From NCBI GenBank assembly GCA_903834135.1, contig CAILHZ010000016.1, forward strand, positions 521,001 through 585,000: a stretch of 64,000 nt of DNA, read 5' to 3'. Origin of the DNA: an uncultured Opitutia bacterium (GTDB lineage Bacteria; Verrucomicrobiota; Verrucomicrobiia; Opitutales; Opitutaceae). Each line of letters starts with the position of its first letter. Within the stretch, counting starts at the first letter, position 1. The translations under genes and the position numbers were made by a program. Below are positions 28,266 to 32,678 of this stretch, piece after piece. The notes beneath the pieces were generated by a model. The model saw only the letters and a list, made by a program, of their open reading frames with translations. It made no database searches and had not been told where the DNA came from.

Positions 28266-29152
28266 AGATAATTTAGCATCCAAATTTCTTTCCATACTCG
28301 GTATCTACCCTCTTGGGTAATTTTACCGTGATCTTCGCGCTCGTTGTGAGGATGTAAAAAACCAAGCTCTGTGTTGAGCTGCTCTAATTCGTGTTGTACA
28401 GAATTTAAATCCACGGCTGGCTCTGTTTTAAAGGCTACAAGTTCACCAGATTTGGCGAGACGTGCTTTATGCTTAGAAAGAAGCCGTTTGATAGATCTGT
28501 TTCGCGGACGTCTTACTACAAACCAATTTTCAGGATAAAACCCGCCAAATGGAATGTACAAGTTATCCGTTACTATGCGTCTTCCATCTAAGGTTAATGA
28601 ACTAAAGCCGTAGCAAACAACGATGGTGCCACTAGCTTGGGGCAAAAAAGTAATTTGTATTCGTGTAGTAGCCTCTTGGTTTTCATAAACCGATACGCGT
28701 AAATAAATCCCCCCTCCTACTTCTGCTTTAAGCGCCTGTGCTTGATGAAAGCCTTGTTCGCGAAGCCAGGATCTAATTTTAAGCAAGCGTGGTTGTGTTG
28801 GCCATTCCTCGCCACTGTCGTTTGGTACATATTTAGGAAACAATGGCATTGGACTTAAGCTGAGAGCAGAAATCGCAAGCCAGTTATAAAGCGTCTCACC
28901 CAGAAACCAGAGTATAAAAAACAAAGCCACTAACGTCCAATAAGGCCTATCTATCCATTGAAAATTTTCACACATCATTGCAGCACCTAAGGCAAAGCCA
29001 GCCCATCTTAGCCAGCGATCAACGATAGATAGCACTGGAGAGCCTATCCGCACGTTGATCTGTACAATGATCAACGAAGCGACAACTGCTGCTATAATCA
29101 AGTATGTGGTCTGCAAGCTACCTAACTTAATCGAACCGGCATGATTACGCAA
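28241..29152 (-). CDS. Uncharacterised membrane protein downstream of dnaN
   Basis: 303 residues; family not recognised. Three hydrophobic segments lie in the first 120 residues (about 14-31, 45-58, 70-95). The remainder is soluble: [49 protein letters not shown] looks like a small alpha-beta domain, followed by [28 protein letters not shown], which is strongly basic. The frame starts with TTG 29150-29152 and would overlap dnaN by 31 bases; a later TTG is possible, so the start is uncertain. Its stop is inside the glyS terminator. Coupling to dnaN suggests co-transcription, not function. Confidence 0.65.
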
Positions 29153-30246
29153 ATGAAGCTATCGAGTGTTTTAAAAACACCAGGACTTACATCATCTTTT
29201 ACTTCAAAGAATACTTCGTCTTTAGTAAGAGCACGCAGCGGATCCATAATAAAAGCAGGGTTGAAAGCAACCTGCAGTTCTGGCCCGCTATAGCCAATCG
29301 CCATAGATTCATGAGCTTCGCCAAAGTCTGGGCTTTGAGCTGTAATTTCTAGTAAGTTGCTCGAAAGTTTAATGCGAACTGAGTTTGCTTTTTCTGAACA
29401 AACAAGCGCTGCACGATGAACGCACTCTAATAATAATTCTCTTTCGAGTTTAATGCGTTGATGTGTTTCTTTAGGTATAACTTGAAGATAGTTAGGATAG
29501 TTTCCTTCAACAACTTTAGAATATAAATAAACGTTGTCGATCAATCCGCTTGTATCTTTATCTGTTGCGATTTGAAACGCACAGCGACGATCGCTAAAAT
29601 TAATTTTAACTTTCTCTCCTTTATCTAATAAGCGGCTAAGTTCAGAAACTGTTTTTGCAGGTAAAATAATCGCCCCTGCGCTTTCTGCAGGAACATCCAT
29701 TTCTTTGCTCACAACAGCCAAACGTCTTCCATCTGTTGCAACTAAAGAAATTTTTCCGTCACGGAAGTTAAAATAAACACCGTTCAAAATATATCGTGTT
29801 TCATCTGTGGACTGCGCATATGACACATTCTTGAGCATGGAGTTAAGCTCATCTTGTTGAAGTGTATATGCTTTCTCTTCTCCAAATTCTGGTAAGGGCG
29901 GAAAGTCTTCTCTTCCTATTCCCATAATTCTAAAATTAGATCCACCGGAAGAAAGTTTAACCTGATGATTTGGTGAACCATCAAAAGTAACATCAATGTT
30001 TGGTAATTCTCTAACGATGCTTGCCAATCTTTTAACAGGAAGTGTAACAGATCCTGTTTCTTTAACTTCTGCTTTTATTTTACAACGAATACCTAAATCT
30101 AAATTTGTTGTTGTAAGAGAGATTTGATCTTTCTCTGCTTCAATAAGCACGTTGCTTAAAATGGGCATAGTGGACTTAGAGCCTACTACATTGAGAACTT
30201 GTGCAAGGCCGTTTGCGAAATGGTCGCGATTGATTTTAAATTTCAT
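29122..30246 (-). CDS. dnaN: DNA polymerase III beta subunit (sliding clamp)
   Basis: 374 residues, normal length. Three clamp domains of about 120 residues; [37 protein letters not shown] at the N-terminus, [11 protein letters not shown] in the middle and the end [17 protein letters not shown] (the usual MPMRL). The ring tethers DNA polymerase III and other partners to DNA. It is not next to dnaA here. The 282-base upstream gap has one DnaA-box-like TGTGAATAA (30426-30434) and an inverted repeat ATTACT...AGTAAT; no gene was found in it. Confidence 0.97.
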
Positions 30247-30528: not shown

Positions 30529-31425
30529 TTAATGGTTTTTTTCCAACTTTGGCTGCTTTGGTTTACGCCAATGTCTAACTAGACCAAAAAAGATGTATGC
30601 AAGGCAGGTACAAACGAACGCAATTTCCTTAAAAAGGATCAAAAAGCCAACACCTATGATAATAAAAACAAAACGCCTCAACTTAGTTTGTGTCTGCAAA
30701 TCTACTTTTTTGCCGCTGGGGTAGCGCACAGTGCTCATCATCAAAAAAGCAATTAAAAGCATCAAAAAAGGCAGGCCTAAAGCATAGCGATTAAGTGATT
30801 TATCAAGGTCGGCTAATTTCAGTAAAAAAAGAACCAAGGCCGCCACAGTCGCAGCAGCAGCAGGCACAGGCAAACCAACGAAATCATTGCTAAGTTCCTT
30901 TTGTTCAGGATGTAACAAAGGATTAGTAATTACATTAAAGCGGGCTAAACGCATGGCCGCACAAAGAAGGTAAATAAAGCCAACAAACCAACCTATATTC
31001 CTAAACCACGGTATTCCTTGGCTAGGAGAAAGGATTAAAAAAAACATCATTAAAGCGGGAGCTAAACCAAACGAAACAACATCCGCTAAAGAATCAAACT
31101 CTGCGCCAAACAGGGATTCTCTTCCTCCAAGACGAGCAAGACGACCATCTAGGGAATCAAAAATAGCGCCGCCAAAGATAAACCACACAGCAGTTCTATA
31201 GTGATCGGGGGCTGTGGCATCCAAATAGGTTCCTAACAAAGACGACTCTGCAAGCCGGGCATGAATGCAGTTTACAATGGCCATAAAGCCACAAAACAGG
31301 TTCCCGGCGGTCATCAAGTTAGGCAGGATATAGATCCTGCTTGCTTGAGCTACATTGTAGGGATCCTGGCGCCTCACAAAATCGGCAGCCTCTGTTTCAT
31401 TAGAAGAATGGCGCGAAAATTTCAT
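30529..31425 (-). CDS. pssA: CDP-diacylglycerol--serine O-phosphatidyltransferase
   Basis: 298 residues. The CDP-alcohol phosphotransferase motif D..DG..AR........G...D...D is complete in FDSLDGRLARLGGRESLFG then AEFDSLADVVSFG (around residues 88-118). About seven membrane helices follow. It makes phosphatidylserine, the precursor of phosphatidylethanolamine, at the inner membrane. The ATG (31423-31425) overlaps the stop of the RelE-like gene as ATGA, so translation is probably coupled. The C-terminus is basic (HWRKPKQPKLEKNH). Confidence 0.94.
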   Translation of the reverse strand: MKFSRHSSNETEAADFVRRQDPYNVAQASRIYILPNLMTAGNLFCGFMAIVNCIHARLAESSLLGTYLDATAPDHYRTAVWFIFGGAIFDSLDGRLARLGGRESLFGAEFDSLADVVSFGLAPALMMFFLILSPSQGIPWFRNIGWFVGFIYLLCAAMRLARFNVITNPLLHPEQKELSNDFVGLPVPAAAATVAALVLFLLKLADLDKSLNRYALGLPFLMLLIAFLMMSTVRYPSGKKVDLQTQTKLRRFVFIIIGVGFLILFKEIAFVCTCLAYIFFGLVRHWRKPKQPKLEKNH

Positions 31426-31772
31426 TTAGTTAAAGTTTCTAAATACTTCCAAAATTTAGAGTCTTGTTCAAAAAGTTGTTGTTCGCTTACAGGCAGGCGA
31501 TTTCTAAGTAAAAAATCTTCTAAACTGTTGCGGTGCAATATGTAATTAACGTGTAAGGTATCGCCAATAGATACAAAATAAAAGCGAAAATCACCCGATC
31601 TTAAACGATAAAAAACATGACCCGTTCGATTAAAACGTCCTAAAGGCTCTCTGGGGTGATCTAGTTGAGCTTGGGTTAATGTACTCATAGGCTCTACAAC
31701 AGTGAGTTGCTGTAGCTTATCTAGGCGGTTCATCTCGTGAAGAGCTTGTTCCGAAAAAGTGACCTGGTACAT
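31422..31772 (-). CDS. RelE/ParE-superfamily toxin-like protein without antitoxin
   Basis: 116 residues, longer than the usual 85-95. FSEQALHEMNRLDKLQQLTVVEPMSTL corresponds to the N-terminal helices, and FNRTGHVFYRLRSGDFRFYFVSIGDTLHVNYILHR to the beta-sheet core of RelE/ParE folds. A C-terminal extension (residues 84-116) is extra. No antitoxin-like gene lies on either side: upstream is the divergent EF-hand gene, downstream pssA, coupled by ATGA. It may be a domesticated RelE fold acting with or on pssA expression rather than a classic toxin; the fold call is by pattern only. Confidence 0.7.
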   Translation of the reverse strand: MYQVTFSEQALHEMNRLDKLQQLTVVEPMSTLTQAQLDHPREPLGRFNRTGHVFYRLRSGDFRFYFVSIGDTLHVNYILHRNSLEDFLLRNRLPVSEQQLFEQDSKFWKYLETLTK

Positions 31773-31859: not shown

Positions 31860-32678
31860 ATGAAGGCTAATTTTTTATCCTTACCCCTAGTTACAGCAAT
31901 GCTATTTCTTGGTACATCTTATGGTGTAGAAATAGCAATACAAGCACCCGCTGTAAGCGCTTCACTTTTAGCATCTCCTACACAACCTGCTTTATCGGAA
32001 CAAGATAAAGAAATCCTCAAACGCTATGATAAAAACGCTGATGGAGTACTAGACGAAGAGGAATTAGCTGCCGCCCATGAGTCCATGTATCGCAACCAAA
32101 TTCAAGCAGAGGTGATAGCGCGGCGTATATATGACCAAATGCTTGCAAAGTTCGATGTACGGCATGAGGGCAAACTAGATCTCGCGCAACAAGAGCAGGC
32201 GCTTGAGTATCTAAAAACAGAACACCCAGAGGCATATAAAAAGGCTCTGGCTCGTTTTGCACGTCAAGGAAGTGGTCTTTTTAGTACAGGCGAAAAAAGC
32301 GCCTTCTTTCAGTATCTTTCAAACTTACCTTCAACGTTAGCTAAAAAAGAAATCAAAGCAATAGGCACAGCAGAATATAGTAAAACAGAGAAAAATAAAG
32401 ATACGGTAAATAATCTCGTAACGCCAAAACCAGCACAAAAACTCTATATGGCACTTCTCAAAAACTTTGATGCAGAGCATAAAGGCAAGCTAACACCTAA
32501 ACAAAAACAACAAGCAGTAGAGTTTATACAGAATAACAGACCGCAAGTTTTTGAGACACTAATTAAAAAATACGATTTCAACGGTAACGGCAAACTAGAC
32601 GAAGAAGAAATAACTAAATTCTTCGGCGACCTAGAAAAAACCATTTCCACGAAAGAAGAAAACGAAATGGGAATGTAA
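31860..32678 (+). CDS. Exported EF-hand calcium-binding protein
   Basis: 272 residues. A signal peptide covers about residues 1-22 (SLPLVTAMLFLGTSYG). Two canonical 12-residue EF loops are DKNADGVLDEEE (57-68) and DFNGNGKLDEEE (239-250). Degenerate loops occur at 99-110 and 204-215. The block 97-150 resembles 202-256, an internal duplication in which different loops kept their calcium ligands. A periplasmic or surface calcium-binding role is likely; the partner is unknown. Divergent from the RelE-like gene over 87 bases; a terminator starts at its stop codon. Confidence 0.8.
   Translation: MKANFLSLPLVTAMLFLGTSYGVEIAIQAPAVSASLLASPTQPALSEQDKEILKRYDKNADGVLDEEELAAAHESMYRNQIQAEVIARRIYDQMLAKFDVRHEGKLDLAQQEQALEYLKTEHPEAYKKALARFARQGSGLFSTGEKSAFFQYLSNLPSTLAKKEIKAIGTAEYSKTEKNKDTVNNLVTPKPAQKLYMALLKNFDAEHKGKLTPKQKQQAVEFIQNNRPQVFETLIKKYDFNGNGKLDEEEITKFFGDLEKTISTKEENEMGM

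What the first reader, a model, noticed from the sequence alone, without database searches (positions are those of the whole stretch)
31422..31772. RelE-like gene without antitoxin, coupled by ATGA to pssA
A RelE/ParE-like fold with a 33-residue C-terminal extension is placed directly before the phosphatidylserine synthase gene with a four-base overlap. Toxins without antitoxins are normally lost, so this may be a domesticated RNA-binding or RNase protein regulating phospholipid synthesis.
Basis: inference. Interest (0 to 1): 0.55.

Follow-up and report, generated by a model that had tools for sequence, protein, structure and literature searches.

The report
Domesticated antitoxin-less RelE-like core gene
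A small gene that looks like a bacterial self-poisoning toxin has, in one whole class of bacteria, become an ordinary, always-present gene with no antidote beside it, probably kept as an RNA- or ribosome-binding housekeeping protein rather than as a regulator of the membrane-lipid gene next door.

Summary
It overlaps pssA (30529-31425) by ATGA and has no antitoxin beside it. It has the RelE/ParE fold. It is not an orphan toxin in decay. It is a vertically inherited core gene of its class of Verrucomicrobiota: 374 of 384 genomes, usually one copy, under purifying selection (median dN/dS 0.144), and kept in the 0.92-Mb endosymbiont Xiphinematobacter. It was not found in plasmid, phage or viral collections. 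Outside the class only short ordinary RelE domains match.

The pssA link is limited to the order: 66 of 72 order loci, but 0 of 38 class loci outside it. So control of pssA cannot be the family's general function. The RelE catalytic pair (Arg81 plus Tyr87) occurs together in 0 of 90 members, while the RNA-facing arginines and a C-terminal E...FW motif are conserved.

Best reading: a domesticated, probably non-cleaving RNA- or ribosome-binding housekeeping protein. The fold, lack of antitoxin and loss of the pair are shown; binding and lack of cleavage are inferred. The window's own protein keeps Arg81, so weak cleavage is not excluded. I found no description of it in the searches run.

The parts
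31422..31772 (-). RelE-fold core gene without antitoxin, 116 aa
   Evidence: ORF; fold; family
31605..31607 (-). Arg56 codon (aligns with RelE K52), 90 of 90 members Arg
   Evidence: the E. coli RelE numbering is mapped by motif from recall, the region is anchored by the 3bpq alignment
31584..31586 (-). Arg63 codon (aligns with RelE R61), 90 of 90 members Arg
31530..31532 (-). position 81 (aligns with RelE general-acid Arg81): Arg in the window protein, Arg in 17 of 90 members, Lys in 55
   Evidence: alignment to 3bpq
31512..31514 (-). position 87 (aligns with RelE Tyr87): Phe in 83 of 90, Tyr in 0 of 90
   Evidence: alignment to 3bpq
31425..31502 (-). C-terminal extension, residues 91-116, with conserved E97 and FW (107-108)
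   Evidence: low model confidence here
31422..31425 (-). ATGA stop/start overlap with pssA
30529..31425 (-). pssA, next gene downstream in the order
   Evidence: TIGR00473
29122..30246 (-). dnaN, third gene of the order-level cluster

Best explanation
The gene is a toxin-derived RelE homologue domesticated near the origin of its class of Verrucomicrobiota and now a vertically inherited, antitoxin-free housekeeping gene. Shown: RelE fold, near-universal single-copy presence in the class, purifying selection, no conserved antitoxin, catalytic Arg81/Tyr87 pair absent, conserved basic residues and a conserved C-terminal motif. Inferred: the protein still docks on RNA, most likely the 30S decoding site/mRNA channel that RelE uses, through Arg49, Arg56, Arg58, Arg63 and Arg90. 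It does so without efficient cleavage, and the C-terminal segment (E97, F107-W108) binds a partner. In Opitutales it is co-transcribed with pssA and dnaN because of operon organisation, not because it regulates pssA.
For: Presence: 55 of 57 relatives; 374 of 384 class genomes and 174 of 178 genera; by my eye count of that table, 33 of 33 single-contig genomes. Sharp boundary: class matches score 109 bits or more, outside the class at most 33 bits and mostly only the RelE domain. Retained in G090, whose single contig is 915,884 bp, the length PMC4607532 gives for the 817-protein endosymbiont Xiphinematobacter. Selection: median dN/dS 0.144 over 1166 of 2415 pairs. Vertical descent: distances track PssA (r 0.80, 50 taxa) and DnaN (r 0.66, 13 taxa), 0 of 499 permutations reaching either; it diverges less than PssA (0.38 against 0.44). 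Not mobile: no match in plasmids, phages or viral contigs. Control: ordinary PF05016 toxins in relatives are patchy (33 of 54 genomes, 0-17 copies, none in the window's genome) and 12 of 17 have a small upstream ORF ending close to or overlapping the toxin start. Catalysis: Tyr87 in 0 of 90, Arg81 in 17 of 90, both in 0 of 90. In PMC2807027 (passages) the R81A/Y87F double mutant of E. coli RelE is almost inactive, while Y87F alone is not significantly reduced. Fold: including RelE on the 70S ribosome (4v7j, Z 7.5).
Against: The window's own protein has Arg81 and Phe87, the combination that kept activity in E. coli RelE, so cleavage is not excluded for it. Arg61, the transition-state residue, is kept (Arg63). 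Lys at position 81 could replace Arg. No binding data exist here. The extension is missing in the Methylacidiphilum-like genus g66 (L067, L070; the genus name is recalled, from no call). The extension is modelled with low confidence (50-66), so the partner idea rests on conservation alone.
Confidence: 0.5

Rival explanations
1. Self-restrained RNase: the C-terminal extension acts as a built-in antitoxin that covers the active site, and release of the segment turns on cleavage.
For: The extension is conserved together with the core in almost all members seen; Arg63 and, in the window protein, Arg81 are kept. Fused toxin-antitoxin genes of this superfamily are known (PMC11980606, passages).
Against: Tyr87 in 0 of 90 and position 81 variable. 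Genus g66 lacks the extension yet keeps the gene. The extension is short and not confidently packed on the core.
Confidence: 0.17
2. ParE-like protein acting on gyrase or another DNA-replication partner, without RNase activity.
For: The Pfam hit is PF05016 ParE_toxin; ParE chains are among the structural matches (3kxe Z 8.1); dnaN is nearby in the order; loss of RNase residues fits.
Against: RelE chains rank at least as high (2khe Z 9.4), though Z values within 1 are ties. The profile's best solved relative is RelE3. PF05016 mixes RelE and ParE. dnaN is not near it outside the order, 0 of 38.
Confidence: 0.12
3. A specific regulator of pssA mRNA.
For: pssA is next in 80 of 80 named Opitutaceae loci, with a possible 4-base overlap in 45 of 80, and in 66 of 72 order loci.
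Against: 0 of 38 class loci outside the order have pssA within about 3 kb on each side, yet the gene is as regularly present there. Six order loci keep the gene without pssA beside it. Co-transcription explains the pair.
Confidence: 0.06
4. An ordinary toxin whose antitoxin is encoded elsewhere.
For: RelE fold; a distant antitoxin cannot be excluded by sequence.
Against: No PF02604 antitoxin and no PF05016 toxin in the window's genome (the PF04221 search is uninformative because its control rang nowhere). Core-gene distribution, catalytic pair lost, no mobility.
Confidence: 0.06

Closest known systems
Archaeal RelE3 (PDB 3bpq) and bacterial RelE toxins (2khe, 9g12 RelE1, 4fxe/4v7j E. coli RelE)
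   Same: Fold (Z 7.5-9.4 for the chains named); conserved basic residues at the RelE K52/K54/R61 places.
   Different: No antitoxin; Tyr87 never present and Arg81 mostly replaced; conserved C-terminal E...FW extension; near-universal single-copy distribution in one class.
ParE_toxin family PF05016
   Same: 18 of 36 members match at E <= 0.01, best 2.5e-6; one family member (G017) passes the curated cut-off in the genome search (27.2 bits against 23).
   Different: The window protein itself does not match; not in a toxin-antitoxin pair.
Cami1 (PDB 8phb/8phj), a RelE-domain ribosome-bound effector
   Same: RelE domain fold (Z 8.8). That it is an antitoxin-free, ligand-controlled RelE nuclease is recalled.
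   Different: Cami1 chains are 372-384 residues; this protein is 116 residues with no added domain of known fold.
PfiT (PDB 9w3a), a ParE/RelE toxin with a C-terminal extension helix
   Same: C-terminal helical extension on a RelE/ParE fold (PMC13048266, passages; Z 7.7).
   Different: PfiT has its antitoxin PfiA and sits in a prophage; its extension builds the toxin-antitoxin complex.

Membership tests
RelE/ParE (BECR-fold) superfamily | Shared fold | tested here: met
   AlphaFold2 model, core pLDDT about 90; Z up to 9.4 to RelE chains, list filled by RelE/ParE/YoeB/HigB entries
RelE/ParE (BECR-fold) superfamily | Significant sequence-profile match | tested here: met
   Profile A1 against 3bpq, E 2e-6; PF05016 in 18 of 36 members; not for the window protein alone
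Type II toxin-antitoxin toxin | Cognate antitoxin gene adjacent | tested here: not met
   No antitoxin-like gene in the window. 24 of 90 family loci have some small adjacent same-strand ORF, but by eye the 26 ORFs printed are dissimilar; 12 of 17 ordinary toxins have a small upstream ORF
Type II toxin-antitoxin toxin | Patchy, mobile distribution (usual, not strictly defining) | tested here: not met
   374 of 384 class genomes; no plasmid, phage or viral match
Type II toxin-antitoxin toxin | Toxic when expressed, relieved by antitoxin | not testable with these tools
   needs expression
RelE ribosome-dependent mRNase | Arg61 equivalent | tested here: met
   Arg63 in 90 of 90
RelE ribosome-dependent mRNase | Catalytic Arg81 and Tyr87 together | tested here: not met
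   0 of 90 have both; the double loss nearly abolishes E. coli RelE (PMC2807027). The window protein keeps Arg81
RelE ribosome-dependent mRNase | Binds the ribosomal A site and cleaves mRNA | not testable with these tools
   needs ribosome binding and cleavage assays
ParE gyrase inhibitor | Inhibits DNA gyrase | not testable with these tools
   needs biochemistry; the fold alone does not decide

The most novel reading that the evidence does not exclude
A whole bacterial class has turned a RelE toxin into a permanent, non-cleaving translation factor that sits in the decoding site or mRNA channel of the 30S subunit and helps a ribosome that relies little on Shine-Dalgarno pairing.
Probability: 0.12. 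Interest if true: 0.9.

Novelty: new variant of a known kind. Interest (0 to 1): 0.6.

Why it matters
Toxin-antitoxin toxins are thought of as selfish or defensive parts that come and go. A RelE-fold protein that is antitoxin-free, catalytically eroded, nearly universal in a bacterial class and kept in an 817-protein endosymbiont would be a clear case of a toxin becoming a housekeeping protein. It would also give a defined target for asking what Verrucomicrobiota ribosomes or RNA metabolism do differently. It matters for annotation too: a name such as toxin would mislead.

Tried and rejected

Leaderless or conserved promoter upstream of the gene: information content over 81 upstream regions shows only C-rich positions at -2 and -1 and no fixed -10 box; dropped.

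Shine-Dalgarno link: first count suggestive. Sister classes without the gene 57/215 starts against 14 background; order 26/240 against 16; class outside the order 24/212 against 23. Larger samples weakened it: G051, with the full-length gene, 15/58 against 0; Xiphinematobacter 11/65 against 2; the truncated-gene genus 0.14-0.27 against 0.09-0.14. One clade contrast, crude start calls; kept only as a lead. Two fetched stretches had no usable ORFs (L220, which reads 0 G+C, and L234, 2015 bases).

16S 3' end: exact anti-SD pattern in 31 of 40 genomes, in 23 of 23 class genomes outside the order but only 3 of 10 in the order. A conserved 16S stretch was not found in 21 order genomes, nor convincingly with 2 mismatches in 16, so rRNA seems not to be held for them; inconclusive.

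RelB search in the own genome: its control rang in no genome, so uninformative. Rfam around the gene: nothing at gathering scores. Papers: searches gave listings only and no description of this family; one search matched unrelated words. PMC3444138 was searched for RelE/toxin (passages); 'toxin' occurs 0 times and the one 'rele' match was not among the passages I could recognise as relevant. PMC11980606 says solitary toxins were removed from its survey (passages). Considered and not pursued: coevolution of the extension with the core (too few diverse sequences).

Full report
What is there. The gene lies on the minus strand, 31422-31772, 116 codons. Its stop TGA overlaps the pssA start ATG by the four bases ATGA. 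pssA (30529-31425) passes the TIGR00473 cut-off; dnaN follows at 29122-30246. Upstream, 87 bases away, a divergent EF-hand protein starts at 31860. No antitoxin-like gene adjoins it.

Fold and sequence. Alone, the protein matches no Pfam, NCBIfam or PADLOC family, and its best solved relative is RelE3, 3bpq, at E 0.047. A profile of 36 relatives (A1) finds 3bpq at 2e-6, and 18 of 36 members match PF05016. An AlphaFold2 model from 56 Opitutaceae-like sequences has a well-predicted core (about 90) and a poorly predicted end (50-66 from residue 91). Its nearest structures are RelE, ParE, YoeB and HigB chains, with 2khe RelE at Z 9.4 and ribosome-bound RelE 4v7j at Z 7.5.

Distribution. 55 of 57 relatives have the gene. 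With the profile, 374 of 384 class genomes of at least 90% completeness have it; counting that table by eye, all 33 single-contig genomes do and the ten misses are fragmented assemblies. In a phylum draw of 288 genomes, 93 class members score 109 bits or more, and eight genomes outside the class match at 33 bits or less, mostly over residues 2-85 only, that is, as ordinary RelE domains. Named relatives are Opitutaceae; NCBI places that family in Opitutia, Opitutales, Verrucomicrobiota. The 'class' of the genome searches is the tool's own grouping, which holds Xiphinematobacter as well and so is wider than NCBI's Opitutia. Genome G090 has a single contig of 915,884 bases, the size given for Xiphinematobacter with 817 proteins (PMC4607532, passages), and it keeps the gene. 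The gene was not found in plasmids, phages or viral contigs.

Selection and descent. Median dN/dS is 0.144 over 1166 of 2415 pairs of 70 sequences; 11 of the 80 named loci were dropped from this count. Distances follow PssA (r 0.80, 50 taxa) and DnaN (r 0.66, 13 taxa), and the protein changes less than PssA.

Comparison with real toxins. PF05016 toxins in the same relatives occur in 33 of 54 genomes, 0-17 per genome, none in the window's genome. Of 17 examined, 12 have a small upstream ORF ending close to or overlapping the toxin start; three of the 20 fetched were dropped for internal stops or a contig edge. In the family, 24 of 90 loci have some small adjacent ORF, and the 26 such ORFs printed look unrelated to each other by eye.

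Active site. Over 90 members (72 order, 18 other; the window's duplicate L001 and the ordinary RelE L072 were left out), Arg56, Arg63, Tyr65, Asp86 and Arg90 are invariant. FW 107-108 is present in all members that keep the extension, 88 of 90. Position 81 is Lys in 55, Arg in 17 and other in 18; position 87 is Phe in 83 and never Tyr. The alignment to 3bpq pairs these positions with its Arg and Tyr. In E. coli RelE, R61A, R81A and Y87A lower cleavage, Y87F does not significantly, and R81A/Y87F almost abolishes it (PMC2807027, passages). So the family as a whole has lost the catalytic pair but kept the phosphate-facing arginines. The window's own protein, with Arg81 and Phe87, resembles the tolerated single mutant, so weak activity cannot be excluded for it.

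Neighbourhood. pssA follows the gene in 80 of 80 named Opitutaceae loci, in 45 with a possible 4-base overlap, and in 66 of 72 order loci. In four of the other six, dnaN follows directly. In 38 class loci outside the order neither pssA nor dnaN occurs within the roughly 3 kb fetched on each side (a few of these stretches were shorter because the contig ended). There the recurrent neighbours are an aminotransferase class V gene downstream (12 of 38) and alanine racemase (8 of 38, six of them directly upstream on the same strand) (one representative of each was identified by Pfam). No neighbour is shared across the class.

Interpretation. The most economical account is a domesticated RelE whose retained arginines still engage RNA, probably on the ribosome, without efficient cleavage, and whose conserved tail binds a partner. 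The last two steps are inference. The literature searches gave no description of such a family, and the 2025 survey of the superfamily states that it set solitary toxins aside (PMC11980606, passages).

Noticed in passing
window; L213-L272; L283-L322: Shine-Dalgarno-like motifs at ORF starts are near background in the window (3/47, background 5) and in much of the class, but frequent in sister classes (57/215 against 14); some class members do use them (G051 15/58 against 0).
   Followed up: partly
L067 and L070 (genus g66): Relatives in one genus end before the E...FW extension, while other members of their family (L054, L056) keep it; the downstream frame shows no remnant of it.
   Followed up: partly
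L195:3459-3701, L197:2813-3082: A small membrane-like protein of unknown family (0 Pfam hits for L195) overlaps the gene's stop in two related loci outside the order.
   Followed up: no
L060, L209: In one family the gene lies between a nucleoside-recognition (Gate) membrane protein and a conserved gene of about 340-370 aa that was not identified.
   Followed up: no
window 31860-32678 (+): Divergent EF-hand protein with two EF-hand matches, starting 87 bases from the RelE-like gene.
   Followed up: no
genomes G072, G032, G169 and others of the order: A conserved 16S rRNA stretch was not found even in single-contig genomes of the order; rRNA seems withheld or diverged there.
   Followed up: partly
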